This document shows positions 50,754 to 64,000 of a stretch of DNA of 64,000 nt, one piece after another; position 1 is the first letter of the stretch, and every line of letters begins with the position of its first letter. The position numbers and the translations under genes are program-made. The DNA comes from Amycolatopsis sp. NBC_01480 (GTDB lineage Bacteria; Actinomycetota; Actinomycetes; Mycobacteriales; Pseudonocardiaceae), in NCBI RefSeq assembly GCF_036227205.1, contig NZ_CP109442.1, forward strand, positions 8,866,001-8,930,000, read 5' to 3'. The notes under the pieces were generated by a model. It worked only from the letters and a program-made list of their open reading frames with translations, ran no database searches and had not been told where the DNA came from.

Positions 50754-51743
50754 ATGACCAGCACCGAAGAAAACCCCACGGCCCGGATCGTCCGGCCGAT
50801 CGCTTACGGCAGCCCGGAAAACCTCGCTGTCTTCGACACCCCGGTGCCGGAACCATTGCCCGGCGGCGTGGTCGTCGAGGTCCGCGCGGCCGGGGTCAAC
50901 CCCATCGACTGGAAGCTCTACAGCGGCGCCTTCCACGCCGTCGCCGACAAGAACAAGGACTCCGCCGGGGTCGCTGAAAACACACTGCCCGCGCTCGGCC
51001 TGGAATGCGCGGGCGTGATCACCGCCGTCGGCGCGGAGGTGACCGGCGCGAAGGTCGGCGACGAGGTGCTCGTCTACCCGGTCACGGCCGCGTACGCCGA
51101 CTACGTCACCGCGCCCGTCACGTCCCTGATCCCCAAGCCCGCCACGCTGGGCTGGGCCGAGGCCGGGGGCTTGCTGCTCGCCGGCACCACTGCCGTCCAC
51201 GTGCTGCACGCGGCCGGCGTCGACGAGGGTGACACCGTGCTGGTGCACGGCGGATCCGGCGGAGTGGGCCTGATGGCCGTGCAACTGGCGGCCGCCCGGG
51301 GCGCGACCGTGATCGCCACGGCCGCGGAACGCAACCACGACCTGTTGCGCGACCTCGGCGCCATCCCGGTCGCCTACGGTCCCGGGCTGCTCGACCGCGT
51401 CCGCGCCGTCGCGCCGGGTGGGATCACCGCCGCCGTCGACCTCGTCGGCACCGCCGAAGCACTCGACACCTCCCTGGAACTCGTCGCCGACCGTCAGCGC
51501 ATCGCCTCCATCACCGGCACCGAACGGCGCGCGGCCGCCGGCATCAAGGTGCTCGGCAACGGTCCCGGCCAGGACACCGGCACCGAGATCCGCAATGCCG
51601 CCCGCGCGGACCTGGCCGAGCGCGCGGGCGCGGGCGAGCTGCGGGTGGTCGTCAGCATCGTCTACCCACTGACCGAGGCTGCGAAGGCGCACGAGGCCGG
51701 GATCGCCGGGCACACGCCGGGCAAGCTGGTGCTGGTCCCCTGA
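50754..51743 (+). CDS. NADP-dependent quinone-oxidoreductase-like enzyme (MDR family)
   Basis: 329 aa zinc-free medium-chain dehydrogenase/reductase. The GroES-like N-terminal half includes VVEVRAAGVNPIDWKLYSGAF and LGLECAGVITAVGAEVTGAKVGDEVLVYP. The Rossmann half has TVLVHGGSGGVGLMAVQLAAARGATVIATA. The C-terminal EAAKAHEAGIAGHTPGKLVLV closes it, and no structural-zinc cysteine cluster is seen. It probably reduces quinones or enones with NADPH. Its stop codon is followed directly by a 46-bp palindrome. Confidence 0.93.
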   Translation: MTSTEENPTARIVRPIAYGSPENLAVFDTPVPEPLPGGVVVEVRAAGVNPIDWKLYSGAFHAVADKNKDSAGVAENTLPALGLECAGVITAVGAEVTGAKVGDEVLVYPVTAAYADYVTAPVTSLIPKPATLGWAEAGGLLLAGTTAVHVLHAAGVDEGDTVLVHGGSGGVGLMAVQLAAARGATVIATAAERNHDLLRDLGAIPVAYGPGLLDRVRAVAPGGITAAVDLVGTAEALDTSLELVADRQRIASITGTERRAAAGIKVLGNGPGQDTGTEIRNAARADLAERAGAGELRVVVSIVYPLTEAAKAHEAGIAGHTPGKLVLVP

Positions 51744-51789
51744 CTCGTGAGTGTTCATGCCGGTTCTAACCGTCATGAACACTCACGAG
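51744..51789. repeat. 46-bp palindrome, copy 4
   Basis: Same family as at 18109 with one arm mismatch. It begins on the base after the oxidoreductase stop codon and lies between that gene and a convergent small gene, matching the terminator-like position of copy 2. Confidence 0.88.
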
Positions 51790-51808
51790 CCCTGACTGTC
51801 CACAGTGG

Positions 51809-51988
51809 TCAGGCGCCGCACGTCGCCTGCTTCACCGCGAACACGTTACGGCTCCCCCCGTTCGCGCTCAGGGTGAACTGGCCGGCCGGCAGGGTCGTCG
51901 GGCCGGCCGCGGCGAAGGCCGGCGCGGCGACCAGCGCCCCGGCCGTGACCAGCGCCAAAACGAGCAGGGAAAAACGGCGTACTGACAT
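51809..51988 (-). CDS. Tiny exported protein, 59 aa, hypothetical
   Basis: A classical signal peptide (RRFSLLVLALVTAGALVAAPAFA) leaves a mature peptide of about 33 residues rich in Thr, Gly and Ala, with one Cys three residues from the end (QATCGA). ATG with GGGGGA upstream. No family recognised. It is monocistronic and converges on the quinone oxidoreductase. The lone near-terminal Cys could allow dimers or covalent attachment. Confidence 0.6.
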   Translation of the reverse strand: MSVRRFSLLVLALVTAGALVAAPAFAAAGPTTLPAGQFTLSANGGSRNVFAVKQATCGA

Positions 51989-52102
51989 GAATCCCCCAGG
52001 AGCCGAGTCAACCCCGCCACGCCAGGGCTCCCCTGAGCGGCCGCGCAATAGCCCGTCCGGGAGGCCGGGTTCGCGGCTGCTGAGTGCGTCGGGCCCGGCG
52101 GG

Positions 52103-52927
52103 TTACGGCGCGGGCTCGGCGAGCGTCAGCACGGCGCGCGCCTGCTCGACCATCGCGACGTCCAGGAACGTCCCGTCGGCCAGCGCGATCGCGCCGACGC
52201 CCGCCGCCGTGGCCCCGGCCACGCGGGCCAGGACTTCCTTGGCGCGCAAGACTTCCCGCGGCGTCGGCAGGAACGCTTCCCGAATCGTCGCCAGCTGCGC
52301 GGGGTGGATCGCCGTACGGCCGCGGAACCCGAGCGCGCGCCCGGCCCGGCACGATGCTGCCAGTCCTTCGAGGTCACGGACGTTCGGGTACACCGACATC
52401 GCGGGCGGCGGCAGGCGCGCGGCCCGCGCCGCGACGATCACCCGGCTGCGCGGCCAGGACAGCGCGGCCTCGTCGTCGACCTGCAGGTCCGAGCGCAGGT
52501 CCGCCTCCCCGAGCGAGATCGAGGCGATCGCGGGTGACGCCGTCGCGATCTGCAACGCCCGCTCGACGCCCAGCGCGGACTCGATCAGCGCGTGCAGCGC
52601 CCGGCCCGGCAGCGCCGCCGCGAGGGCCAGGATCTCCTCCGGTGACTCGACTTTCGGGATCCGCGCGCCCACCGCGAGCGGAAGGCCGGCGAGCGCCGCG
52701 AGGTCTGCTTCGTGCCACGGCGTGCTCGGGTGGTTCACGCGCACCTGCACCGAGCGTGTGCCGGACGCGAGCAGCCGCACCGCGTTCGCCCGCGCCTCCT
52801 CCTTGTGCGCGGGCGCGACCGCGTCCTCCAGGTCGACGAGCACCACGTCCGCAGTGGACTCCAGCGCCTTGCGCACCCGCTCCGGCCGGTCGGCGGGCGT
52901 GTAGAGGAAGGTCAGCGGCGGGGTCAT
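52103..52927 (-). CDS. CitE-like (HpcH/HpaI) acyl-CoA lyase
   Basis: 274 aa (alpha/beta)8 enzyme of the citrate lyase beta/malyl-CoA lyase group, which splits beta-hydroxy-dicarboxyl-CoA esters to acetyl-CoA plus a keto acid. It shows LYTPADRPERVRKA, VVLVDLEDAVAPAHKEEAR (Mg-binding Glu/Asp region), RIPKVESPEEIL, HALIESALGV and ISLGEADLRSDL. ATGA overlap with the class III CoA-transferase gene. Last gene of the LacI-ABC operon. With the CoA-transferase it can form a two-step route: activate a hydroxy acid as its CoA ester, then cleave it. The true substrate is not visible. Confidence 0.9.
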   Translation of the reverse strand: MTPPLTFLYTPADRPERVRKALESTADVVLVDLEDAVAPAHKEEARANAVRLLASGTRSVQVRVNHPSTPWHEADLAALAGLPLAVGARIPKVESPEEILALAAALPGRALHALIESALGVERALQIATASPAIASISLGEADLRSDLQVDDEAALSWPRSRVIVAARAARLPPPAMSVYPNVRDLEGLAASCRAGRALGFRGRTAIHPAQLATIREAFLPTPREVLRAKEVLARVAGATAAGVGAIALADGTFLDVAMVEQARAVLTLAEPAP

Positions 52928-54132
52928 ACCGCTCCCCCGTCACGGAGTTCGGCGACGCGCGCGGCCGAGAACCCGAGTTCGCGCAGCACGGCGTCGGTGT
53001 CCGCGCCGTGCGGGCGCCCGGTGAACCGGATGACGCCGTCGTTGCCGGACAGCCGGAACAGCGGGCCCTGCATCAGCATCGGCCCGAGTTCGGGGTCCTC
53101 GACCTCGTGGATCGTGCCCAGCGCGCGGAACTGCGGGTCCTCGACGATGTCGGCGGCGGTGTAGATCGGGGCGACCGCGGCCTGGGCCTCCTCGAACGCC
53201 GCGACGACCTCGTCCCGCGTGCGTTTCGCGATCCAGCCGCCGACGGCCTCGTCCAGTTCGTCGGCGTGCTTCGCCCGGTCGGCCCCGCGCGCGAACCACG
53301 GCTCGTCCACCAGGTCGGGCCGGCCGACCAGGCGGACCACCCGCTCGGCCACCGACTGGGCCGAGGTCGAGACCGCGACCCACTGCCCGTCGACAGTCCG
53401 GTAAGTGTTGCGCGGAGCGTTGTTGATGGAGCGGTTTCCGGTGCGCGGCTGGACGCTGCGCAGCTGGTCCCAGCGGGTGATCTGCGGCCCGAGCATGGCC
53501 AGGATCGGCTCGATGATCGCGGTGTCGACCACCTGCCCCAGCCCGGTGGTGCCGCGCGCCGCGAGCGCCACCATCACCGCGTACGCCGTGGCCAGCGACG
53601 CGACCCCGTCCGCGAGCCCGAACGGCGGCAGCGTCGGCGGGCCGTCCGGCTCACCGGTCGTCGCCGCGAACCCGCTCATCGCCTCGGCGAGCGTGCCGAA
53701 CCCGGGCCGCGAGCGGTACGGGCCGAACTGCCCGAACCCGGTGACGCGCGCCAGCACGAGCCGCGGGTTCCGGACCGACAGCTCGTCGTAGGACAGTCCC
53801 CAGCGTTCCAGCGTGCCGGGCCGGAAGTTCTCGATCACCACGTCCGCGGTGGCGGCCAGCGCGAGGAACACCTCACGGCCACCGTCACTGCCGAGGTCGA
53901 TGGTCACCGTGCGCTTGTTGCGGCCGAGCGTCTTCCACCACAGGTTCACGCCGTCCTTGGCGGCGCCGTGGCCGCGCGAGGGATCGGGCCGGTCCGGGTG
54001 CTCGACCTTGATCACGTCCGCGCCCATGTCGCCCAGGTGCATCGCGGCCATCGGGCCGGCGAACAGGGTGCACGCGTCGACCACGCGGAGCCCGGCCAGC
54101 GCGCCGGCTTCCGGATCACGGGAGACGGTCAC
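52924..54132 (-). CDS. Class III (CaiB/BaiF) CoA-transferase
   Basis: 402 aa. Family signatures are LAGLRVVDACTLFAGPMAAMHLGDMGADVIKVEHPDRPDPSRG near the start, LGRNKRTVTIDLGSDGGREVFLALAATADVVIENFRPGTLERWGL, and FGTLAEAMSGFAATTGEPDGPPTLPP. Where formyl-CoA transferase has its catalytic Asp, I read VDTAIIEP, suggesting Glu; an alignment should confirm this. The GTG start at 54132 overlaps the previous stop (GTGA). It likely activates an organic acid for the CitE-like lyase. Confidence 0.92.
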   Translation of the reverse strand: MTVSRDPEAGALAGLRVVDACTLFAGPMAAMHLGDMGADVIKVEHPDRPDPSRGHGAAKDGVNLWWKTLGRNKRTVTIDLGSDGGREVFLALAATADVVIENFRPGTLERWGLSYDELSVRNPRLVLARVTGFGQFGPYRSRPGFGTLAEAMSGFAATTGEPDGPPTLPPFGLADGVASLATAYAVMVALAARGTTGLGQVVDTAIIEPILAMLGPQITRWDQLRSVQPRTGNRSINNAPRNTYRTVDGQWVAVSTSAQSVAERVVRLVGRPDLVDEPWFARGADRAKHADELDEAVGGWIAKRTRDEVVAAFEEAQAAVAPIYTAADIVEDPQFRALGTIHEVEDPELGPMLMQGPLFRLSGNDGVIRFTGRPHGADTDAVLRELGFSAARVAELRDGGAV

Positions 54133-56030
54133 GACGTCACCTCCGGAAGGTCCCAGGCGCAACGGAAGCCGACCGTCGCGCTGCGCGCCAGGCCGAGCCC
54201 GGGCAGCAGCAGCTTCACGCTGTAGTCCGGCGCGTGGCGGCCGCCCTCGACGTACCACTCGGAGCCCTCGGCCCGGAAATCGCTCCCGCCTTTGAGCATC
54301 ACGAACCGCGTACGGCCGTCGGAGTGCTCGCTCTCGGTCCAGTTCCACACCGCGGGCTCGCCGCGGCGCAGGCCGCCGGACTGCCCCGCCAGCTGCCACT
54401 CGTCCTCGGTGGGCAGACGCCCGCCGCGCCATGCGCAGTACGCGCGCGCGTCGTCGAGGTCCACATAGGTCACTGGCGCGTCCGCGTCTCCCCTAGCGGA
54501 CGGGGCCCGATGGCCGGTGGCCGCGACGAATTCGGCGAACTGCGCGTTCGTCACCTCAGTCACCGCGACCGCGACGGGCGTGGCCAGCTCACCTTCACGC
54601 TGGAGCGTCCGCGGGTCGTGCAGCCGGGGCGGCAACGGCTTCCACTCGTCGACGTACGGCGCGCCCTGGTACATCCCGGTCTCGCGGGCGCGGTACCGGA
54701 CGGTCAGCACGTACGGCCCGGCCGGAACGACCACGGCGTCCACCTCAGGCTCGCCGTATGTCCTTTGTGGAGCAACGCGAGTGGCCAGCCGGTGCGGGAA
54801 GCGGGCGTCGGGATCGTGCCGCATTCCGGCCAGCGCCTCACGGAGTTCCGGCAGCCACGCGGGTTCGTCCGTGAACTCGAGGGCCGCGCCGATCCCGCGG
54901 GCCGGCACCCCGCCCAGGAGGTCGATGCCCGGCAAGGGGCCTTGGTAGCCGGTCTCGCCGCGGTTGACGAGTGTCCACAGTGTCACGCCGTCCAGCTCCC
55001 AGCTCGACGCGTAGATCCCGGCCGCTTCGAAGGGCAGCTCGGCGAGCGGGGTCCACGAGCCGTGCAGCAGCAGCTCGCTCGCCGCGCGCTGGACCGTGAC
55101 CATCCGCCGCACGGTCGCTGAGTCGCGGGGCGACCAGCCGACCCAGACTCCGAAGACGACCTCCCAGACCATCACCCCGACACCGTTGAGCCACGCGGAT
55201 TGCAGTTCCTCCGAGTGATCACGGTGCCAGCGCCGGACGTGGTGCTGCATGTGCCGCCGCTCGTACCAGTGCGAGCGCAGCACGCCGGGCACGGGCGAGT
55301 CGGCGAAGAACTGGGCCCACGACGCGGCGTGGTCCTCGATCCGCTCGACCGCGAGCTTGGACTCGCCCTCCAGCACCAGCCCGGGCCGGGCCGCCTCCAG
55401 CCGCGCGACGAACTCCGGCTCGGCCTTTTTGAGGGTGTCGAGGAAAACTCCGTCCACGCCGAGGTCCGCGACCAGCGCGGCCAGCTCGGTGCGGTCGTCA
55501 CCGGCCCGGCGAGTGCCGACGTCCCACGGGTTGTAGTCGACGAACACGTGCAGGCCCGCTTCGTGCAGCGCGGTGATCAGGGCCGCCAGCCCGGGCACGT
55601 CGCGGTAGAAGTCCCACTGGTTGCGCTCGTCGAGGCCGATCACCGGGTACGCGTGCCAGAGCACCACCGCATCCAGGCCGCCGAACCGATCCCGCGCGTC
55701 AGCCAGGAACCGCTCCGGCGTGAACTCCGCTTTTTCGAAGGAGTACAGGAGTTCGTCCCACAGCCACACCTGCGCGACGGCGTAGCAGGTGGCCGCCCAC
55801 GCCCCGGCCGGACGCTCGTACGCCGCGCCCGTGTAGCCGTGACGCCGCCGCGCTTCTTCGCGCCACACCCGCAGGTTCTCGCGCCACGCGGGCCAGTCGG
55901 CCGGCTCGGCGGGCGCGGCGAAGATCTTGGCCTCGTCCAGCGCGGCCAGTGCTTCCTCGGTAAGCACGGCGGGCACCTGCGAAGGCCGGTCGATCGGACG
56001 CGGGACCAGCGGATCGAACGGGACGGTCAT
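54129..56030 (-). CDS. TIM-barrel glycosidase-like protein fused to an FGE-like domain
   Basis: 633 aa. Residues about 100-430 read as a glycoside-hydrolase-like barrel: GLDAVVLWHAYPVIGLDERNQWDFYRDV, LHEAGLHVFVDYNPWD, LGVDGVFLDTL and LVLEGESK suggest acidic active-site residues at strand ends. Residues about 480-628 are an FGE-sulfatase/EgtB-fold domain: VTNAQFAEFVAATGH, YCAWRGGRLPTEDEW, VMLKGGSDF, ATVGFRCAWD. The catalytic cysteines of true formylglycine enzyme are not seen, so the domain may bind ligand instead. No signal peptide. It is coupled by 4-base overlaps to ribokinase and the CoA-transferase, so it probably acts in the cytoplasm on the imported compound. Confidence 0.8.
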   Translation of the reverse strand: MTVPFDPLVPRPIDRPSQVPAVLTEEALAALDEAKIFAAPAEPADWPAWRENLRVWREEARRRHGYTGAAYERPAGAWAATCYAVAQVWLWDELLYSFEKAEFTPERFLADARDRFGGLDAVVLWHAYPVIGLDERNQWDFYRDVPGLAALITALHEAGLHVFVDYNPWDVGTRRAGDDRTELAALVADLGVDGVFLDTLKKAEPEFVARLEAARPGLVLEGESKLAVERIEDHAASWAQFFADSPVPGVLRSHWYERRHMQHHVRRWHRDHSEELQSAWLNGVGVMVWEVVFGVWVGWSPRDSATVRRMVTVQRAASELLLHGSWTPLAELPFEAAGIYASSWELDGVTLWTLVNRGETGYQGPLPGIDLLGGVPARGIGAALEFTDEPAWLPELREALAGMRHDPDARFPHRLATRVAPQRTYGEPEVDAVVVPAGPYVLTVRYRARETGMYQGAPYVDEWKPLPPRLHDPRTLQREGELATPVAVAVTEVTNAQFAEFVAATGHRAPSARGDADAPVTYVDLDDARAYCAWRGGRLPTEDEWQLAGQSGGLRRGEPAVWNWTESEHSDGRTRFVMLKGGSDFRAEGSEWYVEGGRHAPDYSVKLLLPGLGLARSATVGFRCAWDLPEVTS

Positions 56031-56911
56031 GACACCTTTCCTCCGGCCGCCGCGGCGACCTCCTCGGCAGTCGGGACGCCCGCTTGCGCACCCGGGCGCG
56101 TGACCGCCAGCGCACCGGCCACGCAGGCCTGACTGGCGGCGTCGGCCAGGCCCGATCCCCGCGCCAGCGCGGCCGCGAGCACCCCGCAGAACGTATCCCC
56201 GGCACCGGTCGTGTCGACCACGTCCACGCCGATTCCCTTGACCCGCAACGGTTCCCGATCCCGTTCCAGGATGAGGCAGCCCGCTCCGCCGAGGGTGACC
56301 ACGGCCGACGGAACCCGCTTCAGCAGTTCCTCCGGAGCGCCCGCGAGGTCGGCGGCCTCATGCTCGTTCACGACGAGCACGTCGACCGCGGCCCACAGAT
56401 CGTCGGGCAGCTCACGCGACGGCGCCGCGTTCAGCACCAGCAGCGCTCCTGATCGACGGGCTGCCGCGGCGGCCGTCACCACTTCCAGCGGGATCTCCAG
56501 CTGGGCCAGCACCACGTCGGCCTCGGCGATCCGCTCGGCCTGCGCGGCGCCGAGCCGCAGCCGTTCGTTGGCGCCCGGCGCGACGACAATCGCGTTCTCA
56601 CCGTCCGGGGCCACGCTGATCAGCGCGGTCCCGGTGGGCGCGTCGGCCCGCTCGACGAGGTCGGTCCGGACCCCGGCCCCGCGCAACGACGTGAGCAGCA
56701 GGTCCGCGGCCTCATCTTCGCCGAGGGCACCGAGGAACGTCGTGTCCGCTCCCCCGGCCCGCGCGGCGGCGACGGCCTGGTTCGCGCCCTTGCCGCCGGG
56801 GTGACGGCGCAGCCCGCCGCCGAGGATCGTCTCCCCGCCGCGCGGCGGGCGGGGCACGTCGACCACCAGGTCCACGTTGGCCGAGCCGACCACCACCACC
56901 CGGCCGATCAC
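56027..56911 (-). CDS. Ribokinase-like PfkB-family sugar kinase
   Basis: 294 aa. It has VVGSANVDLVVDVPRPPRGGETILGG at the start, HPGGKGANQAVAAARAGG (substrate-binding GG), and the C-terminal DVVDTTGAGDTFCGVLAAALARG with the anion hole and catalytic Asp. It phosphorylates ribose or a related sugar. Directly coupled to the ADP-ribosylglycohydrolase-fold gene upstream, which suggests it traps the pentose released there as the 5-phosphate. Adenosine kinase-like use is less likely given the NVDLVVDV start. Confidence 0.93.
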   Translation of the reverse strand: MIGRVVVVGSANVDLVVDVPRPPRGGETILGGGLRRHPGGKGANQAVAAARAGGADTTFLGALGEDEAADLLLTSLRGAGVRTDLVERADAPTGTALISVAPDGENAIVVAPGANERLRLGAAQAERIAEADVVLAQLEIPLEVVTAAAAARRSGALLVLNAAPSRELPDDLWAAVDVLVVNEHEAADLAGAPEELLKRVPSAVVTLGGAGCLILERDREPLRVKGIGVDVVDTTGAGDTFCGVLAAALARGSGLADAASQACVAGALAVTRPGAQAGVPTAEEVAAAAGGKVS

Positions 56912-58251
56912 GAAGCGCCCCGGGCCGCCAGCGCCGTCGTGCGCGCGGCAAGGTCCACTATGGACTGCTCGCCGCCGGGAAGCGAGGTCGCGATCCGGCC
57001 GTCCAGCGGTGTGGTCCAGTACTCGCCGATGCCGTCCGGTCCCAGCAGCGCGCCTACGACCCCGCCGACGGTCGCCGCCGCCGAGTCGGTGTCCCAGCCG
57101 GCCGTGACCGCGATCGAGACGCTCGGGCCGAACTCGCCGCCGCCCTTGGCCAGCGCGTACGCGATGACCGCGGCGTTGTTGAGCACGTGTACCCAGTGCA
57201 GGTCCCCGTACGCCGCGTGCAGCCGGTCGAGCCCAGCGCGAACATCGCCTTCCGACGCCGCTTCACGCCCGAACCGCACCGCCGCGGCGAGCCGGCTACG
57301 AGGCGGGATCACCGCGAAAGCCGCGTCCAGAACCTCGTCGACGGTGCCGCACACCATCGCCGCTGAAGCGAGCGCCGCGGCCCACAGCGCGCCGTACACG
57401 CCGTTGCGCGTGTGGCTGAGCCGGGCGTCGGCCCAGGCCAGCCGCGCGGCAGCGCGCACGTCGCCCGGGCAGACCCAGCCGAAGACGTCGGCGCGGATCA
57501 ATGCGCCGATCCACTCGCGGAACGGGTTCTGGTGCGTCGCGGTCTCCGGCACCGGCCGGGCGTCGAGGATGTTGCGGTAGGCCGCGCGTTCCGCGGTGAA
57601 GACCCGGCCCGCGGGGAGGTGATCGAGCCACAGCTGCGCGACGTCGTCGGTGCCGAAGCCGCGGCCGTGGGTTTCGAGCAGGGTGAGCGCGAGGATCGGG
57701 TAGTTGAGGTCATCGTCCTCGGGCATCCCGTGGATGTTCTCCTCGAGCGAGGTCGGGGCCGAACGCCGGTTCCACGGCCACCGCGCGGCCACGTCCGCGG
57801 GCAGCCCGGCGGCGGTGAACCACCGGTCGAGCGGCCAGCGCCCGGTCGCGCGCAGGATCTCCTCGATGCCCTCGCGGGGGACCTTCTCCACCGGCTTGCC
57901 GAGCAGGCACCCCGCGGCCCGGCCGGTCCAGGCCCCGAGCACCCGCTCGTCACCCACGAGGTCCGGTAGCTCCGGCGCGGGCGGCAACGAAGCGAGGATC
58001 GCCTCCCAGCCGTCCGGCTCGTCCGGCGCCGGGGCGGCGGGCAGCGCGTCCAGCTGGTCGAGCAGTTCCCGGGCCAGCGCCCGCAATTCCGGGGACGCCG
58101 GACGCGGGCCCGCCCCGCTCACCGCGGGCACGAGGTCACCACCGGCGGCGGCCCAGCGCGCGCGGATCCCGAAGCTGTCCTTGCCCTCCACAGTGGACTG
58201 GACCAGCTCGTGCGCGAGCAGGTCCTCGGGCTGGGCCCAGGTCAGCCTCAC
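56908..58251 (-). CDS. ADP-ribosylglycohydrolase-fold hydrolase, paralog 2
   Basis: 447 aa. An N-terminal extension of about 110 residues precedes the ARH fold (LGAWTGRAAGCLLGKPVEK). Metal-site motifs are diverged: MPEDDDLNYPIL in place of TDDT, and GWDTDSAAATVGGVVGALLG keeps the Asp-x-Asp-Ser box. ARH-fold enzymes cut N- or O-glycosidic bonds of ADP-ribose-like substrates with two Mg ions. Next to ribokinase it probably cleaves a ribosyl bond. The GTG start overlaps the stop of paralog 1. Confidence 0.88.
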   Translation of the reverse strand: MRLTWAQPEDLLAHELVQSTVEGKDSFGIRARWAAAGGDLVPAVSGAGPRPASPELRALARELLDQLDALPAAPAPDEPDGWEAILASLPPAPELPDLVGDERVLGAWTGRAAGCLLGKPVEKVPREGIEEILRATGRWPLDRWFTAAGLPADVAARWPWNRRSAPTSLEENIHGMPEDDDLNYPILALTLLETHGRGFGTDDVAQLWLDHLPAGRVFTAERAAYRNILDARPVPETATHQNPFREWIGALIRADVFGWVCPGDVRAAARLAWADARLSHTRNGVYGALWAAALASAAMVCGTVDEVLDAAFAVIPPRSRLAAAVRFGREAASEGDVRAGLDRLHAAYGDLHWVHVLNNAAVIAYALAKGGGEFGPSVSIAVTAGWDTDSAAATVGGVVGALLGPDGIGEYWTTPLDGRIATSLPGGEQSIVDLAARTTALAARGAS

Positions 58252-59426
58252 GCCGGCTCCCCCACGGCAACGGCGGCGAGCGTGTCGAGCGCACTGAGCC
58301 GGGCCAGCGCCCGCTCGCGGTCGGCGCGCAGGATGTCGGCGGCGGCCGAGCCCAGGAGCCGGCCGGTCTCGCGCAGGTCCGTGCGGCTGGCGTCGCCGAT
58401 CGCGTCGACCCACTCCGCGGGCACCACGTCGGTCCCGCCCAGCCCCGCGCAGATCGCGCCGGCCATCACGGCGATCGAGTCCGCGTCGCGGCCGTAGTTG
58501 ACGGCGGCAAGCACCGCACCCCGGAAGTCCCCCTGGTGCGCCAGCACAAACGCCAGCGCGGCGGGGAGCTCCTCAATGGACTTCGTCCGCGACGGGCGCC
58601 GCGCGTCCATCGACATCTGCCGGTACTCCGGGCCCACCGAGTCGAACGGGGCGACCGTCTCCCGGACCAGCCGGGCGAGCGCGCGTTCCTCGTCCTCAGT
58701 GGACGGTGGCGGGGTCCGGCCGCCGAACCGGTCGACGACCGCCCGCAGTGCCGCCGCGGTCCCGTCGTGCGCGACGTCGAGCGCGGCCTTCACCACGTCG
58801 TCGAGGCTCGCGCCCGGAGCGACGCTGGCCGCGACCATCGCGGCCAGCACCCCGGCCGCCTCGCGCCCGTAACTCGACTGGTGCGCGCCGGTGAGGTCGA
58901 TCGCCTCGGCGTACGCGCCACGCGGGTCGCCGGCGTTCACGATCCCGACCGGCGCGACGTACATCGCCGCGCCGCAGTTGACCACGTTGCCCACGCCCGC
59001 CTCACGCGGGTCGACGTGCCCGTAGTGCAGCCGCGCGACGATCCACTTCTCCGCGAGGAACACCCGTTGCAGCAGCAAAGCCGTCGACTCCAGCTCCGGC
59101 ACCCAGCGCGGTTCCCCGATCATCAGCGGCACCAGGTCCTCGGCCATCGCGTACGCGTCGAGGTGCGCGCGGCGCTTCGCGTACACCTCGACGAGCGCCC
59201 GAGTCATCAGGGTGTCGTCGGTGATGTGCCCGTCGCCCTTGTGGTACGGGGCGATCGGGCGGGCGTCCTGCCAGTTCGGGTACCAGGGGCCGACGATTCC
59301 GGTCACCCGCCCGCCGTGCCGCTGTTCGATCTGCTCGGGGGTCCAGCCCTCGACGGCGCCGCCGAGCGCGTCGCCCACCGCCGCGCCGGTGATCACCGCG
59401 ACGGCCCGGTTTTCCAGCCAGGTCAA
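58248..59426 (-). CDS. ADP-ribosylglycohydrolase-fold hydrolase, paralog 1
   Basis: 392 aa with complete ARH motifs: ITGAAVGDALGGAVEG at the start, HITDDTLMTRALVEVY (metal-binding TDDT) and NYGRDADSIAVMAGAICAGLGG (second metal site). It starts at TTG with AGGAG 8 bases ahead. It lies 19 bp behind the sugar-binding lipoprotein. The two paralogs differ in length and motifs, so they may act on two bonds or two forms of one substrate. Cytoplasmic. Confidence 0.92.
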   Translation of the reverse strand: MTWLENRAVAVITGAAVGDALGGAVEGWTPEQIEQRHGGRVTGIVGPWYPNWQDARPIAPYHKGDGHITDDTLMTRALVEVYAKRRAHLDAYAMAEDLVPLMIGEPRWVPELESTALLLQRVFLAEKWIVARLHYGHVDPREAGVGNVVNCGAAMYVAPVGIVNAGDPRGAYAEAIDLTGAHQSSYGREAAGVLAAMVAASVAPGASLDDVVKAALDVAHDGTAAALRAVVDRFGGRTPPPSTEDEERALARLVRETVAPFDSVGPEYRQMSMDARRPSRTKSIEELPAALAFVLAHQGDFRGAVLAAVNYGRDADSIAVMAGAICAGLGGTDVVPAEWVDAIGDASRTDLRETGRLLGSAAADILRADRERALARLSALDTLAAVAVGEPA

Positions 59427-59445
59427 GAATCCGCTCCTGTCCGCT

Positions 59446-60720
59446 TCACTTGCTGACGCTCTTCCAGCCGTCTTCGAGCTGGCTCTTGAGCCCGTTCGCG
59501 TCGACCTGCTGCGCGAGGAACCGCTGGTACGCCGGGGTCGCGACGGTGTCCTTCCACTGCGCGTACTTGCCGGCGAACAGGTACGGCGCCGACGTCAGGT
59601 ACTGGCCCGAGGCGAGGATGGTGCCCCAGCCGTTCTTCGAGCCGAGCTTGGCGGTCAGCGCCTGCCGCGCCGAGGTGGTCGGCGGGATCAGCGCGTCGGC
59701 CTCGTTCATCGCGGCCAGGTTCTCCGTGTCGGTGAAGAAGTCCACGAACTGCGCGGCCTCCTTCACGTGCGCCGAGTCCTTGTTCACCGACAGCGTCTGC
59801 GGGTTCGCGGCCTGCTCCGGTCCGGACGGGCCGGCCAGCGGCGGCAGCACGATCCAGTCGAAGCCCTTCGGCGCGTCCTTCTCGATGTTCACCGCCTGGT
59901 AGGAGCCCTGGACGGTCATCGCCGTCTGGCCCGCGTAGAACGGCGCGAGCGCCTTGGTGCCGGACTGCGTCAGCGTGACCGGGAGGATCGACTTGTCCTG
60001 GTACGCCATCGAGTTCACCAGCTGGGGCAGCGCCATCTCACCCTGGCCGACCGAAAGCGACGCGTTGTCGCCGGTGCCCTGGAAGTACTTGCCGCCGAAG
60101 GCCGGTGCCAGCGCCACGAACGCCGCGGTCGGGCTCGACAGGCCCCAGCCGAGGCCGTACTTGCCGTCCTTGGTGGTGGCCTTGGCGATCTGGCGCAGCT
60201 GGTCCCAGGTCATGGTGGCGCCGGTCGGGATCGCGACACCCGCCTGTTGCAGCTGGGTCTTGTTGGCGAAGACCACATAGGACTGCAGCTCGGTCGGGAC
60301 GGCGACCACCTTGCCGTCCACCGTCACCGAGTCGAGCACGCCCTTCGGGATGTCCGCGCGCTTCTGCCCGGACAGGTACGGCGTCAGGTCCGCGAGGTAG
60401 CCGTCGCTGGCGAACGGCGCGATGCCCGCCGCCTCGTAGTGCACGATGTCCGGCGCCGAGCCGGCGTTGAACTGGGTGACCAGCTTGTCGTAAACCCCGT
60501 CCCAGCCGGCCGGCACGATCTTGACCTGCACGTCCGGGTGCGCCTTGTTCCAGTCGCCGACGATCTTCTGCGTCTGCGCGATCGCGGCCGGCTGGTCGGA
60601 CAGGGATTGGAAGGTGAGCGTGACCGGCCCGCCGCTGTCCCCGCTGCCGCCGCCGCACGCGGCGAGCAGCAGACTGGTGACCAGCAGGCAGGCGGCGACC
60701 ACCGCGCGTCGTGTCTTCAT
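59446..60720 (-). CDS. ABC transporter sugar-binding lipoprotein
   Basis: 424 aa family 1 extracellular solute-binding protein. The lipoprotein signal ends LLLAAC, followed by GGGSGDSGG. Binding-protein features are VTLTFQSLSDQPAAIAQTQKIVGDWNKAHPDVQVKIVPAGWDGVYDKLVTQFNAGSAPDIVHYE. The start MKTRR at 60720 is chosen for its signal sequence and AAAGG upstream. It delivers substrate to the two permeases next to it. No ATPase gene is in the cluster, so a shared MsiK-type ATPase is likely. Confidence 0.95.
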   Translation of the reverse strand: MKTRRAVVAACLLVTSLLLAACGGGSGDSGGPVTLTFQSLSDQPAAIAQTQKIVGDWNKAHPDVQVKIVPAGWDGVYDKLVTQFNAGSAPDIVHYEAAGIAPFASDGYLADLTPYLSGQKRADIPKGVLDSVTVDGKVVAVPTELQSYVVFANKTQLQQAGVAIPTGATMTWDQLRQIAKATTKDGKYGLGWGLSSPTAAFVALAPAFGGKYFQGTGDNASLSVGQGEMALPQLVNSMAYQDKSILPVTLTQSGTKALAPFYAGQTAMTVQGSYQAVNIEKDAPKGFDWIVLPPLAGPSGPEQAANPQTLSVNKDSAHVKEAAQFVDFFTDTENLAAMNEADALIPPTTSARQALTAKLGSKNGWGTILASGQYLTSAPYLFAGKYAQWKDTVATPAYQRFLAQQVDANGLKSQLEDGWKSVSK

Positions 60721-60758
60721 CGACCGACCTTTCGAGCGTTTTCCATCGGGGGACCGGG

Positions 60759-61586
60759 TCATCCCTTCACCGCCCCGGCCATCAGGCCGCTGGTGAGCTT
60801 CCGGCGAAGGATGCTGAAGAAGACGATGCTGGGAATGGCGGCCAGCACCGCGCCCGCCGCGAGCGGGCCGAGGGCGACCTTGCCTTCACCGCCGACGAAC
60901 ATGTTCAACGTGATCGGCAGGGTGTAGTTCTCCGGCGACTGCAACAGGACCAGTGCGAAGAAGAACTCGTTCCACGAGGACACGAAGCTGAACATCGCCG
61001 TCGCCACCACGCCGGGGGCCAGCAGCGGGAAGACGATCGTGCGCAACACCGTCAGCCTGCTCGCGCCGTCCATCGCCCCGGCTTCTTCCAGCTCCACCGG
61101 GATCGCGGCCACGTAACCCTGAAGCATCCACAGCGCGAACGGCAGCATGTACGTGGTGTGCACCAGCGTCAGCCCGACGAGGTTGTCGGCCAGCCCCAGT
61201 GTCCGCAGGATCAGGAACAGCGGCAGGATGATCAGCACCACCGGGAACACCTGGCTGACCAGGATCCAGCCGACGCCGGCCACCCGGACCTTGCCGCGCA
61301 GCCGGGCCAGCACGTACGCCGCGGGCACCGCGATGAGCACCGAAAGCGCGGTGGAGGCCAGCGCGACCACGAGGCTGTTCCACGCCGAATGCAGCAGGCC
61401 CTGCTTGGTGAACGCCTCCGCGTAGTTCTCCCAGTGCCACTCGTGCGGCAGCAGGCTCGCCGAGAGCGAGTTCAGCTCACCGGACGATTTCACCGAGGCG
61501 GAAATCAGCCACAGCAAGGGAAAACCGAGGAACAGGATGTACAGCGCGAGGGCCGCGTACTGGGCCGGGCGCAGGAGCAGGCGCAT
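60759..61586 (-). CDS. Sugar ABC transporter permease (MalG type)
   Basis: 275 aa with six transmembrane segments. The EAA loop reads LEEAGAMDGASRLTVLRTIVFPLLAPG. It pairs with the MalF-type permease, whose stop is 3 bp from this start. Confidence 0.96.
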   Translation of the reverse strand: MRLLLRPAQYAALALYILFLGFPLLWLISASVKSSGELNSLSASLLPHEWHWENYAEAFTKQGLLHSAWNSLVVALASTALSVLIAVPAAYVLARLRGKVRVAGVGWILVSQVFPVVLIILPLFLILRTLGLADNLVGLTLVHTTYMLPFALWMLQGYVAAIPVELEEAGAMDGASRLTVLRTIVFPLLAPGVVATAMFSFVSSWNEFFFALVLLQSPENYTLPITLNMFVGGEGKVALGPLAAGAVLAAIPSIVFFSILRRKLTSGLMAGAVKG

Positions 61587-61589
61587 CGG

Positions 61590-62558
61590 TCACCGGCCCT
61601 TTCGGACGTCGGCGGCGCGGTCGTCGCGGAACTGTGACCGCAGGTAGACCGCGAGGATCAGCACGACCACCACGACCAGGACCATGCCCATCGCCGCGGC
61701 GTAGCCGATTTCGCGGTTCTTGAACGCCTCCAGGTAGACGAACAGCACCGGCACCATGGTCTTGCCGCCCGGCCCGCCCGCGGTGAGCACGTAGACCAGC
61801 GAGAACGAGTTGAAGTTCCAGATGAAGTTCAGCGAGGTGATCGAGGTGACGATCGGCCGCAGCGCCGGCCAGGTCACCGCGGTGAACCGCCGCCACGCGC
61901 CCGCGCCGTCCACCGCCGCGGCCTCGTGCAGCTCCGCCGGGATCTGCTGCAGCCCGGCCAGCAGCGTCACCGTGGTCTGCGGCATGCCGACCCACACCCC
62001 GACCACGATCACCGCGGGCAGCGCGGTGGAGAAATCGCCCAGCCAGTTCGTGTCCGAGGGCAGCCCGACGCTGCCGAGCACGGCGTTCAGCGGGCCGCCG
62101 TTGGCCGAGTAGATCATCTGCCACATGATCGCCACCACCACCGGCGGCATCGCCCACGGCACCAGCGCGAGCACCCGGGTCAGGCCCTGGAGCTTGAGGC
62201 CGGAGTTCAACAGCAGCGCCAATCCCATCGCGGCGGCGAGCTGGAGCACGGTCACGCCGACTGTCCAGATCAGGCCGATCCGCAGCGAGTCCCAGAACAG
62301 CGTGTTGCCGGCCAGGCGGGTGAAGTTGTCCACCCCGGCGAAGCCGTAATCCGGGTGGCGCACCAGCCGCGCGTTCGTGAAGGCGAGGAAGACGCCTATC
62401 AGCAACGGCGCCACGCTGAGCACGAGGATCGGGATCAGCGACGGCAGCACCAGCCCGACAGCCTCGCGCCGCCGGGTCCGCGCCGCTTGCCCTCGCGACG
62501 CCGGTTTTCTTGACGGCTTTTTCGGCGCCGCTTGGGGCAGCAGGGTGTCCGTGCTCAT
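61590..62558 (-). CDS. Sugar ABC transporter permease (MalF type)
   Basis: 322 aa with six transmembrane segments after a basic cytoplasmic lead of about 32 residues. The EAA loop is LHEAAAVDGAGAWRRFTAVTWPALRP. The ATG shares one base with the LacI stop (TGATG), showing co-translation with the regulator. It forms the import channel with the MalG-type protein. Confidence 0.96.
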   Translation of the reverse strand: MSTDTLLPQAAPKKPSRKPASRGQAARTRRREAVGLVLPSLIPILVLSVAPLLIGVFLAFTNARLVRHPDYGFAGVDNFTRLAGNTLFWDSLRIGLIWTVGVTVLQLAAAMGLALLLNSGLKLQGLTRVLALVPWAMPPVVVAIMWQMIYSANGGPLNAVLGSVGLPSDTNWLGDFSTALPAVIVVGVWVGMPQTTVTLLAGLQQIPAELHEAAAVDGAGAWRRFTAVTWPALRPIVTSITSLNFIWNFNSFSLVYVLTAGGPGGKTMVPVLFVYLEAFKNREIGYAAAMGMVLVVVVVLILAVYLRSQFRDDRAADVRKGR

Positions 62559-63589
62559 CACTCGCCTCCTTCCAGCACCGTGGATTCGACCGATGTGGAT
62601 TCGCGGATTCGCAGCGCCGGGCCGACGTTCACCTGCTGCGCGGGCTGGTCCGGGTCGTCGGCCAGTTGCAGCATCAGCCGGGCCGCCGCGCGCCCGCGCT
62701 CGGTCGAGCCGAGCGACACGCTGGTGAGGCTGGGCTGGAAAACGCGGCCGAGCTCGGTGTCGTCCATGCCGGTCACGGCCACGTCCCCTGGCACCGACAG
62801 GCCCAGCTCGCGCACCGCGCGGATGGCGCCGATGGCGAGCAGATCGTTCGCCGCCACGAGCGCGTCGAGCTGCTGCTCGGGCCGGCGGGCCAGCAGCCGC
62901 CGGGCGGCCTCGAGCCCGGCCGTGACGGTGAAGTCGCCGGCGATCTCCTGGTCGAACCGCTCCGCTTGACCGTGGTCCACGGCGTCGAAACCGCGCTGAC
63001 GGGACGAGCCCGGGGTCGTGTCGAGCGGGCCGTTGAGGAACCCGATGCGGCGGCGGCCGATCCCGTACAGGTGCCGGACCGCCTCGGCGATGCCGCCGGC
63101 CGAGTCCGTGGAGACCGAGCTGATGCCGCGGTCGTCCATCGCCCGGCCGATCACCACCACCGGCACCGGGGCCCGCTGGATCTCGGCGATCAGCCGGTCG
63201 TCGGTGCGCAGCGGGCTGACGATCAGCCCGTCGACGAACCCGCTGTTCAGGCTCCGCACCAGCTCGGCGGTCGAGGTCGCGGTGTCCCCTGTGGACATCA
63301 CCACCACCCGGTACCCTTGGGGCGCAAGGACTTCGTGGATCGCCCGCATCATGTCGACGTACACCGGGTTCCCGATGTCCGCCACCGCGAACGCGACCTG
63401 GAACGTCTTCTTCATCCGCAGCGACCGCCCGGTCGCGTCGACGCTGTACCCCAGCTCCGCGGCCGCGGCGACAACCCGCTCCACCATCGCCTTGCTCGCG
63501 CCGCTCCCGTGCAGGGCGCGCGAAGTGGACGCCAGGGAGACCCCGGCCCGCTCGGCCACCTGCATCAGCGTGGCGCGTGTTGACGTCAT
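62558..63589 (-). CDS. LacI-family repressor
   Basis: 343 aa. The N-terminal HTH and hinge are TLMQVAERAGVSLASTSRALHGSGASKAMVERVVAAAAELGYSVDATGRSLR. A ribose-binding-like effector domain (FAVADIGNPVYVDMMRAI, DGLIVSPLRTDDRL, DALVAANDLLAIGAIRA) follows. First gene of the ten-gene operon, so it is autoregulated through the twin operators 43-89 bp upstream. The inducer is presumably the imported sugar compound or its phosphate. Confidence 0.95.
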   Translation of the reverse strand: MTSTRATLMQVAERAGVSLASTSRALHGSGASKAMVERVVAAAAELGYSVDATGRSLRMKKTFQVAFAVADIGNPVYVDMMRAIHEVLAPQGYRVVVMSTGDTATSTAELVRSLNSGFVDGLIVSPLRTDDRLIAEIQRAPVPVVVIGRAMDDRGISSVSTDSAGGIAEAVRHLYGIGRRRIGFLNGPLDTTPGSSRQRGFDAVDHGQAERFDQEIAGDFTVTAGLEAARRLLARRPEQQLDALVAANDLLAIGAIRAVRELGLSVPGDVAVTGMDDTELGRVFQPSLTSVSLGSTERGRAAARLMLQLADDPDQPAQQVNVGPALRIRESTSVESTVLEGGE

Positions 63590-63631
63590 CGTCGTGGGTA
63601 CCTCGGTGGCTAGGACTGGGGACTCGGCGGG

Positions 63632-63678
63632 TTGGAAACGTTTACAAGTGCTGATTCACTGGTTGAAAACGTTTCCAA
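63632..63678. promoter_or_regulatory. Twin LacI-family operators
   Basis: TTGGAAACGTTTACAA (63632-63647) and TTGAAAACGTTTCCAA (63663-63678) are both near-palindromes with the central AACGTT of LacI/GalR sites. Their centres are 31 bp apart, close to three helical turns, on one face of DNA ahead of the lacI start. Confidence 0.88.
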
Positions 63679-63784
63679 CGGAGTGTTTCTGAATACTGAC
63701 ACCCGGGGAACGGGCGTGTCAACAACACCCTCTGTGCAGCCGCGCAGGCACTGTGCGTGGCCAGCTTCGGCGCCACACGGGTCG

Positions 63785-63925
63785 GCCGTTAAGGACTCCT
63801 TCACCGCGTGCGACGCCGGTAAGGCCTCCTTCGCAGCGCACCACGCCGGTAAGGAGTCCTTAACGGCATACGACGCGGGCAAGGCCTCCTTCACCGCGTT
63901 TGCGACGCCGGTAAGGAGTCCTTGA
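63785..63925. repeat. Five tandem ~30-bp repeats with AAGGAGTCCTT-type cores
   Basis: Five units of about 30 bp each carry a short palindromic core, alternating TAAGGAGTCCTT and AAGGCCTCCTT, usually preceded by GCCGG and followed by CACCGCGT..CGAC. The 373 bp from 63590 to 63962 contain these repeats and the operators but no convincing gene. Confidence 0.8.
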
Positions 63926-63962
63926 CCGGCGGGCCTGAGTCCCGCGCAGCGAACCCCGGCGG

Positions 63963-64000
63963 TCAGACGACGGCGAGCCGGTCCACCAGCAGTTCCACCC
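63963..64000 (-). CDS. C-terminal end of a minus-strand gene, unidentified
   Basis: Reading in from the right edge on the minus strand gives VELLVDRLAVV and then TGA at 63963-63965, with coding-like third-position GC. Only 11 residues are inside, so no function can be given. Confidence 0.35.
   Translation of the reverse strand, partial: VELLVDRLAVV

What the first reader, a model, noticed from the sequence alone, without database searches (positions are those of the whole stretch)
52103..63589. Ten-gene LacI operon for uptake and breakdown of a glycosylated (ribosylated?) compound
A LacI repressor, sugar importer, two ARH-fold hydrolases, ribokinase, barrel/FGE fusion, CoA-transferase and CitE-like lyase lie on one strand, mostly with 1-4 base overlaps. 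Two ribosyl-bond hydrolases plus ribokinase imply release and capture of ribose. The CoA-transferase plus lyase imply a hydroxy-acid part cut to acetyl-CoA and a keto acid. I know of no described pathway with this set.
Basis: partly seen in the sequence, partly recalled or inferred. Interest (0 to 1): 0.78.

Follow-up and report, generated by a model that had tools for sequence, protein, structure and literature searches.

The report
Sugar-acid conjugate catabolic operon with ARH-fold hydrolases
Soil bacteria related to Amycolatopsis share a ten-gene, self-regulated operon that probably imports a sugar joined to an organic acid and digests both halves, using enzymes of a fold so far known mainly for removing ADP-ribose; the substrate is not identified.

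Summary
In detail: ten same-strand genes at 52103-63589, seven of nine junctions being 4-base overlaps. Of 80 loci fetched by the barrel/FGE gene, 57 carry all ten tightly in order, four carry all ten with an insert, 8 are cut by contig ends. The kinase is most often missing (10 of 72 uncut loci). The repressor's probable operator, TGGAAACGTTTCCA-like, precedes lacI in 70 of 71 regions. A secreted esterase accompanies 15 of 80 loci, once inside the operon, once behind its own operator copy, but has no orthologue in the window's genome. A core of arh1-arh2-(kinase)-coaT-citE also occurs without importer, barrel gene or repressor in a Streptomyces-like genus (arh2 beside coaT in 83 of 88 genomes). 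It is probably S. coelicolor SCO2028-2033, whose ARH proteins are in print as uncharacterised putative ADP-ribosyl hydrolases. Best reading: uptake and cleavage of a furanosyl (probably ribosyl) conjugate of a hydroxy-dicarboxylic acid. The substrate, and whether both halves come from one molecule, are not shown. No structure model was obtained (33 tries, machine busy).

The parts
63693..63722 (-). promoter-like TTGACA-18-CAGTAT ahead of lacI
   Evidence: read by eye; the consensus scan found no promoter-like site in 51700-63999, so weak
63664..63677 (.). LacI operator copy 1 (TGGAAACGTTTTCA on minus strand)
   Evidence: conserved palindrome in 70 of 71 upstream regions; binding not tested
63633..63646 (.). 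LacI operator copy 2 (TGTAAACGTTTCCA on minus strand), 31 bp from copy 1
62558..63589 (-). lacI: LacI-family repressor, probably autoregulatory
   Evidence: PF00356/PF13377; full-length similarity to CcpA and ribose-operon repressor structures
61590..62561 (-). permA: MalF/UgpA-type importer permease
   Evidence: PF00528; UgpA/MalF models, below cut-off
60759..61586 (-). permB: MalG-type importer permease
   Evidence: PF00528; GlcU/MalG models, below cut-off
59446..60762 (-). sbp: lipoprotein sugar-binding protein (lipobox LLAAC, by eye), CUT1 type
   Evidence: PF01547 E 9.2e-40; sugar-binding proteins in PDB
58248..59426 (-). arh1: ARH-fold hydrolase, TTG start
   Evidence: PF03747 E 5e-48; metal motifs conserved
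56908..58251 (-). arh2: longer ARH-fold hydrolase, GTG start
   Evidence: PF03747 E 1.1e-45 (given from 58341); motifs EDDD and GWDTDS conserved; start read
56027..56911 (-). rbk: ribokinase-like PfkB kinase (dispensable member)
   Evidence: PF00294; TIGR02152 264.4 bits against cut-off 299.65; closest solved structures are ribokinases
54129..56030 (-). barFGE: apparently cytoplasmic protein of an unassigned N-terminal domain (about 430 aa, probable glycosidase-like barrel) fused to an FGE-like domain
   Evidence: PF03781; N-terminal half has no Pfam match and no significant PDB hit; invariant acids D198, E221, E223, E257, E290
52924..54132 (-). coaT: class III (CaiB/Frc-type) CoA-transferase, GTG start
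   Evidence: PF02515 E 4.8e-119 (given to 54129); Asp203 conserved 77/77
52103..52927 (-). citE: CitE/HpcH-like C-C lyase
   Evidence: PF03328; nearest solved structure an acyl-CoA lyase beta chain (8khl); R63 and E116 77/77

Best explanation
The ten genes form one LacI-controlled catabolic operon for a glycoconjugate made of a furanose sugar, most likely ribose, and a hydroxy-dicarboxylic acid (malate, citramalate or 3-hydroxy-3-methylglutarate type). In some species a secreted esterase first frees the conjugate outside the cell. The CUT1 importer (sbp, permA, permB, with an ATPase encoded elsewhere) takes it up. barFGE, a probable glycosidase with a lectin-like FGE domain, and the two ARH-fold enzymes open the glycosidic bonds in the cytoplasm. 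rbk, or another ribokinase of the cell, phosphorylates the freed sugar. coaT moves CoA onto the freed acid, and citE splits the hydroxyacyl-CoA into acetyl-CoA (or a homologue) and a keto acid. The induced state is reached when a pathway intermediate lifts LacI from its operators upstream of lacI. Shown here: gene set, order, conservation, conserved operator-like sites, catalytic motifs of five enzymes, the link to the esterase, and a core of arh1-arh2-coaT-citE that exists without the importer beside it. Inferred: every reaction and its order, and LacI binding. Not known: the substrate.
For: Co-conservation of all ten genes: 17 of 18 loci; 57 of 80 complete and tight; 61 of 72 uncut loci with all ten. 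Operator-like site, one mismatch allowed, in 70 of 71 regions upstream of lacI (window included), two sites in 53, against 0.02 regions expected after base shuffling. In the own genome the pattern TKKAAACGTTTYCA matches exactly at two places, both here; two further places match with one mismatch. Esterase homologues at 15 of 80 loci, inside the operon in Micromonospora L135 (between barFGE and coaT) and with an exact operator-like site 18 bases ahead of its start in L125. Motifs intact in arh1, arh2, rbk, coaT and citE. Second architecture arh1-arh2-(rbk)-coaT-citE in a Streptomyces-like genus; trees of coaT and arh1 both join it to the Kribbella and Micromonospora operons. 9 of 10 genomes searched that lack rbk in the operon have a ribokinase-family gene elsewhere. 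A distant ARH2-like gene lies next to a ribokinase-like gene in L238 and behind importer-like genes in L232. A paralogue of barFGE with a Tat-like signal sits with an RbsABC-like importer and a LacI gene in L054 (importer and signal read by eye).
Against: No substrate, ligand or activity evidence. rbk is the most often lost gene and scores below the ribokinase cut-off. One kinase-less genome (G513) shows no ribokinase-family gene at E 1e-40. The Streptomyces-like loci have no importer beside them, so the substrate there would have to be internal or enter another way. coaT and citE are missing in L049 and L123, and L087 keeps only importer, arh2 and barFGE, so the acid branch is not always needed. 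The esterase is absent from 65 of 80 loci and from the window's lineage. The acid and the sugar may come from different molecules. The barrel fold is unproven.
Confidence: 0.45

Rival explanations
1. An ordinary plant-oligosaccharide operon: the esterase removes hydroxycinnamate from a pentose-containing cell-wall fragment, the importer takes up the fragment, barFGE and the ARH-fold enzymes act as unusual furanosidases, and coaT-citE handle an ester acid such as ferulate or a side product.
For: The esterase is PF00756 with propeller repeats. Among solved relatives of its esterase domain, after two entries named only esterase or putative esterase, come ferulic acid and CE1 esterases. Many carriers are cell-wall degraders by genus name (Cellulosimicrobium, Cellulomonas, Promicromonospora; lifestyle recalled). 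CUT1 importer type.
Against: Only 15 of 80 loci have the esterase. No glycoside hydrolase family is found in the operon. The core occurs with no importer beside it in Streptomyces-like genomes. A CitE-type lyase is not a known ferulate enzyme (recalled).
Confidence: 0.2
2. ADP-ribose or NAD-derived salvage: the ARH-fold enzymes remove ADP-ribose, ribose or O-acyl-ADP-ribose from cell constituents, rbk recycles ribose, and coaT-citE recycle the acyl group.
For: Family name and retained di-metal motifs. The probable Streptomyces counterparts are listed as putative ADP-ribosyl hydrolases (PMC9411070, PMC5087735; passages read). No importer gene at the nine loci read in that genus.
Against: A LacI-controlled sugar importer and a barrel/FGE protein make little sense for it. 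No Nudix or phosphatase family in the operon. SCO2028 and SCO2030 had no detectable activity on U-alpha-ADP-ribose (PMC13036486, passages read); other ADP-ribosyl substrates are not reported for them in the passages I read.
Confidence: 0.15
3. Two pathways share one operon: a sugar branch (importer, arh1, arh2, barFGE, rbk) and an unrelated organic-acid branch (coaT, citE).
For: coaT and citE are lost together in L123 and L049, and with others in L087.
Against: arh1-arh2 and coaT-citE stay joined in the second architecture that lacks the importer: arh2 lies within 3 kb upstream of coaT in 83 of 88 Streptomyces-like genomes with coaT.
Confidence: 0.2

Closest known systems
Uncharacterised DraG/ARH cluster SCO2028-SCO2031 of Streptomyces coelicolor
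   Same: Nine loci of a Streptomyces-like genus carry orthologues of arh1, arh2, (rbk), coaT and citE in that order; in L223 two further ARH genes precede them. PMC9411070 lists SCO2028-2031 and PMC5087735 lists SCO2028-2030 as ARH homologues (passages). That these are the same locus, and that SCO2032/2033 are coaT/citE, is my inference from neighbouring genes recognised by eye and recalled gene numbers.
   Different: No importer, barFGE or LacI gene at the locus; two extra ARH genes; treated in print as ADP-ribosylation enzymes.
E. coli yegTUV operon (nucleoside-type transporter, ARH-like protein, PfkB kinase; gene identities recalled)
   Same: Transporter plus ARH-like protein plus sugar kinase under a local regulator.
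   Different: GntR-family regulator YegW (start of the abstract of PMC10819704 seen in a listing), one ARH, no CoA-transferase, lyase or barrel/FGE protein (recalled). Not compared by sequence here.
Bacteroides ribose-utilisation (rus) loci (recalled)
   Same: Ribokinases with nucleoside hydrolases and, in some species, ARH-like proteins.
   Different: Outer-membrane SusCD uptake, no acid branch. Recalled only; paper not read.
Itaconate/citramalate breakdown (CoA-transferase plus Ccl/RipC lyase)
   Same: Same pair of reaction types; citE scores best on the RipC/Ccl model (154 bits) and on an acyl-CoA lyase structure.
   Different: Below the RipC/Ccl cut-off of 375 bits; no hydratase gene; tied to sugar genes.
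Actinobacterial CUT1 sugar operons under LacI (recalled kind)
   Same: Repressor, lipoprotein binding protein, two permeases, no own ATPase, operator ahead of the regulator.
   Different: No glycoside hydrolase of a known family; ARH-fold enzymes and CoA chemistry instead.

Membership tests
LacI-family repressor with local operator | LacI DNA-binding domain plus periplasmic-binding-like effector domain | tested here: met
   PF00356 and PF13377 over cut-off
LacI-family repressor with local operator | conserved palindrome at its own promoter | tested here: met
   70 of 71 upstream regions, 53 with two sites; binding itself not tested
CUT1 ABC sugar importer | binding protein and two BPD_transp_1 permeases of MalFG type | tested here: met
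CUT1 ABC sugar importer | dedicated or shared ATPase | not tested
   none in the operon; a shared MsiK-type ATPase is recalled as usual, not searched
ADP-ribosyl hydrolase (DraG/ARH) | PF03747 fold family | tested here: met
   both over cut-off
ADP-ribosyl hydrolase (DraG/ARH) | acidic di-metal motifs (positions recalled from ARH3/DraG) | tested here: met
   arh1 73/73 and 72/72; arh2 74/74 and 76/76, where EDDD stands at the place of the usual T-D-D (correspondence judged by eye)
ADP-ribosyl hydrolase (DraG/ARH) | release of ADP-ribose from a modified substrate | not testable with these tools
   needs assay; DraG and Tri1 equivalog cut-offs not reached by arh1, no NCBIfam hit for arh2
Ribokinase | NCBIfam TIGR02152 equivalog cut-off | tested here: not met
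   264.4 bits against 299.65; the genome's other copy also fails, 278.2
Ribokinase | sugar- and ATP-site motifs N-x-D, GGKGAN, E139, GAGD | tested here: met
   64/64 at N12, D14, GGKGAN, E139, D239; roles of these residues recalled
Class III CoA-transferase | PF02515 and catalytic Asp | tested here: met
   Asp203 77/77; its role recalled from formyl-CoA transferase
Class III CoA-transferase | membership in a characterised substrate class | tested here: not met
   all 7 matching NCBIfam models miss their cut-offs, best 218 of 750 bits
CitE-like lyase (RipC/Ccl) | equivalog cut-off of RipC/Ccl | tested here: not met
   154 against 375 bits
CitE-like lyase (HpcH/HpaI superfamily) | fold family and conserved active-site residues | tested here: met
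   PF03328; R63 and E116 77/77, D143 76/76, D256 74/74; roles recalled
Formylglycine-generating enzyme | FGE-sulfatase domain | tested here: met
   PF03781 in 15 of 15 members of A1
Formylglycine-generating enzyme | catalytic cysteine pair | not tested
   positions known only from recall; the domain may be a ligand-binding module
Glycoside hydrolase (barrel half of barFGE) | match to a glycosidase family | tested here: inconclusive
   no Pfam hit to E 10 in five proteins; an alpha-amylase only at E 0.45, behind a designed protein (0.039) and a ribosomal protein (0.15); no structure model obtained

The most novel reading that the evidence does not exclude
A branch of the ARH fold, including the tandem ARH genes listed in Streptomyces papers as putative ADP-ribosylation erasers, is not for ADP-ribosylation at all. 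It is a set of metabolite glycosidases in an undescribed pathway that splits a ribosyl (or other furanosyl) ester or glycoside of a hydroxy-dicarboxylic acid, with a CoA-transferase and a CitE-like lyase feeding the acid half into acetyl-CoA. Streptomyces would use the pathway on an internal or separately imported compound, Amycolatopsis and relatives on an imported one.
Probability: 0.4. Interest if true: 0.78.

Novelty: new variant of a known kind. Interest (0 to 1): 0.62.

Why it matters
ARH-fold proteins are usually annotated, and in Streptomyces discussed, as ADP-ribosylation erasers. A conserved module that ties two of them to a CoA-transferase, a C-C lyase and often a kinase gives a concrete alternative and a way to find the substrate: the operon's binding protein and the LacI effector. 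It would add a new catabolic pathway, a new barrel/FGE enzyme family and a metabolic role for a fold also found in animals (recalled).

Tried and rejected
Structure prediction of barFGE (alignments A1, A2, A3) and once of arh1: the machine was busy at all 33 tries, so no fold comparison was done.

Viral contigs hold no relative of barFGE by peptide patterns.

The second ARH pair of the own genome (L055) has no hit to any of the ten genes at E 1e-10 and was dropped. Kribbella inserts between arh1 and arh2 are a minus-strand PhoD phosphatase and an F5/8-type protein and were not taken as pathway members. Many unlabelled ORF families inside the loci look like antisense frames of the operon genes. 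L204 was fetched and not used.

Esterase orthologue in the window's lineage: not found. The own genome has one partial match (39%); of 21 relatives that carry the operon, 20 have only partial matches of 31-51% identity.

Considered and rejected: a toxin-immunity role (no toxin-like family in the operon); chance clustering; feruloyl-CoA breakdown by coaT-citE (no fitting enzyme known to me).

Paper searches that led nowhere for this gene set; one search gave only yegTUV leads; two searches gave the Streptomyces papers.
Full report
Observation. Seven of nine junctions are 4-base overlaps; the other two are gaps of 3 and 19 bases. No ATPase gene is present. The kinase fails the NCBI ribokinase cut-off (264.4 of 299.65 bits), but its closest solved relatives are ribokinases and its site motifs are intact.

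Co-conservation in the genus. A search of 100 genomes (own and relatives) found full-length barFGE in 21 of 60 same-genus genomes, own included, and in 1 of 40 others of the order (its tally of 47 of 100 is mostly the FGE half alone). Of those 22 I read 18 further loci; three of the genus were not fetched, and the own one is the window. Seventeen of 18 have all ten genes in order; L049 lacks coaT and citE. The locus in the other family, L053, has all ten at 42-68% identity.

Co-conservation in the phylum. The one scan of named bacterial genomes with the barFGE alignment found 218 relatives, of which the best 80 were kept; the named and unnamed sets overlap. By tblastn (E 1e-10), 57 of 80 have all ten genes collinear with gaps under 400 bp. 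Eight are cut by contig ends. Of the remaining 15, nine lack only rbk, one lacks coaT and citE, one (L087) keeps only permA, permB, sbp, arh2 and barFGE, and four have all ten with an insert. So rbk is missing in 10 of 72 uncut loci, coaT and citE in 2, lacI and arh1 in 1. Genera include Amycolatopsis, Prauserella, Saccharopolyspora, Promicromonospora, Cellulosimicrobium, Georgenia, Cellulomonas, Microbacterium, Nocardiopsis, Kribbella and Micromonospora. Loci were found by barFGE, so its own presence is by construction.

Regulation. Upstream of lacI lies a palindrome, TGGAAACGTTTCCA, usually twice. As TKKAAWCGWTTMMA with one mismatch allowed it occurs in the last 150 bp before lacI in 70 of 71 regions (the window and 70 loci), twice in 53, of which 43 are spaced 31-35 bp; base shuffling gives 0.02 regions of 71. 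In the own genome TKKAAACGTTTYCA matches exactly at two places, both here; two other places match with one mismatch. Among 36 genomes searched with TGKAAACGTTTMCA, 27 have a match, at 30 places: 27 ahead of an operon's lacI, one ahead of the esterase in L125, and two elsewhere, one of these beside another LacI-ribokinase gene pair (L199), the other in L200. Binding of LacI to this site is inferred.

A secreted partner. The 839-aa protein behind the operon in L078 has a PF00756 esterase domain and a beta-propeller repeat (signal peptide by eye). In PDB its propeller half matches CylK; its esterase domain matches two entries named only esterase or putative esterase and then ferulic acid and CE1 esterases. 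Homologues lie at 15 of 80 loci, six of them from one closely related Cellulosimicrobium group. In L135 it sits inside the operon between barFGE and coaT. In L125 it is on the other strand, and an exact operator-like site lies 18 bases ahead of its start (site 6960-6973, start 6941). L201 is the other half of that operon, in the same MAG. The own genome has no clear orthologue (39% over 167 aa), nor have 21 relatives with the operon. How often such an esterase would lie near an unrelated operon was not measured.

A second architecture. Searching 396 genomes of the phylum with arh2 gave 15 with a match at E 1e-25, own included. I fetched 16 stretches. In nine, all of one genus with 7.8-9.9 Mb genomes, arh1, arh2, coaT and citE follow each other, with rbk between in six. 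In L223 two further ARH genes precede them (Pfam); the ORFs of L225 and L228 read the same way by eye. The importer, barFGE and lacI have no hit in these stretches. In 121 genomes of that genus, coaT is found in 88 at E 1e-170 and arh2 at E 1e-60 in 98, some of these only by a paralogue of about 45% identity. In 83 of 88, arh2 lies upstream of coaT on the same strand within 3 kb; 65 gaps have room for rbk, 17 are under 300 bp, one is 1766 bp. Five do not show the pair: three without an arh2 match, one on another contig, one far away. Trees of coaT (90 rows) and arh1 (84 rows) both join these nine to the Kribbella and Micromonospora operons and L053 (100/100; 100/98); branching inside that group differs between the two, and the root is a midpoint only.

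What is in print. Passages of PMC9411070 list SCO2028-2031, and passages of PMC5087735 SCO2028-2030, as uncharacterised DraG/ARH homologues. Passages of PMC13036486 report that purified SCO2028 and SCO2030 had no detectable activity on U-alpha-ADP-ribose. By gene order SCO2030 would be the arh1 orthologue (inference). Other ADP-ribosyl substrates are not covered by the passages I read. Searches for this gene combination listed no paper describing it, within an open-access library; one search listed 15 of 95.

Mechanism. See Best explanation. The steps with family-level support are import, hydrolysis by the ARH fold, sugar phosphorylation, CoA transfer and C-C cleavage. For barFGE I infer a glycosidase from invariant acids (D198, E221, E223, E257, E290), a motif like that of an alpha-amylase at an insignificant E of 0.45, and a paralogue with a Tat-like signal next to an RbsABC-like importer in L054. 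The kinase is dispensable probably because another ribokinase-family gene is present in 9 of 10 kinase-less genomes searched (G513 is the exception); that fits a common sugar such as ribose but does not prove it. coaT and citE miss every equivalog cut-off, so the acid cannot be named.

Judgement. A well-supported, widely conserved, unexplained catabolic system. The strongest new point is that the ARH genes travel with CoA-transferase and lyase genes in two different settings, one of which is probably filed in the literature under ADP-ribosylation. The weakest points are the unknown substrate, the missing structure model, and the unnamed status of the second genus.

Noticed in passing
L054:7460-13740: In G034 a 31-36% identical paralogue of barFGE with a Tat-like signal lies divergent from a LacI gene and next to an RbsABC-like importer (importer and signal read by eye).
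   Followed up: partly
L056:4817-6377 and L075:13152-14712: In Amycolatopsis echigonensis (L075; L056 looks like the same genome) the 3' end of citE is repeated in tandem (period about 249 bp) behind the stop codon.
   Followed up: partly
L113:13174-15624: In Tessaracoccus coleopterorum citE matches only in pieces, gaps between genes are large and the esterase match is partial: a decaying operon or a poor assembly.
   Followed up: no
L129, L132, L136, between arh1 and arh2: Three Kribbella loci carry a minus-strand PhoD phosphatase and an F5/8-type protein inside the operon (Pfam for L136).
   Followed up: partly
L129:14018-15610 and other Kribbella loci: A FAD-dependent oxidoreductase of about 530 aa follows citE in all seven Kribbella loci held (Pfam for L129).
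   Followed up: partly
L055 (G000:C1:3222000-3241900): The own genome has a second pair of ARH genes without any other operon gene nearby.
   Followed up: no
L199:5670-10166: A different LacI gene (31% identity) followed by a ribokinase-like gene shares an exact copy of the operator-like site and faces a large repeat protein.
   Followed up: partly
L233-L236: A second ARH2 paralogue of about 45% identity recurs in Streptomyces-like genomes; a CitE homologue of about 30% identity lies about 5 kb away in three of the four.
   Followed up: no
L078: The record named Sphaerisporangium cinnabarinum groups inside Cellulosimicrobium in the coaT tree; the record may be mislabelled.
   Followed up: no
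L061-L063: In the coaT tree one Amycolatopsis group joins Nocardiopsis (98/95), which suggests horizontal transfer of the operon.
   Followed up: no
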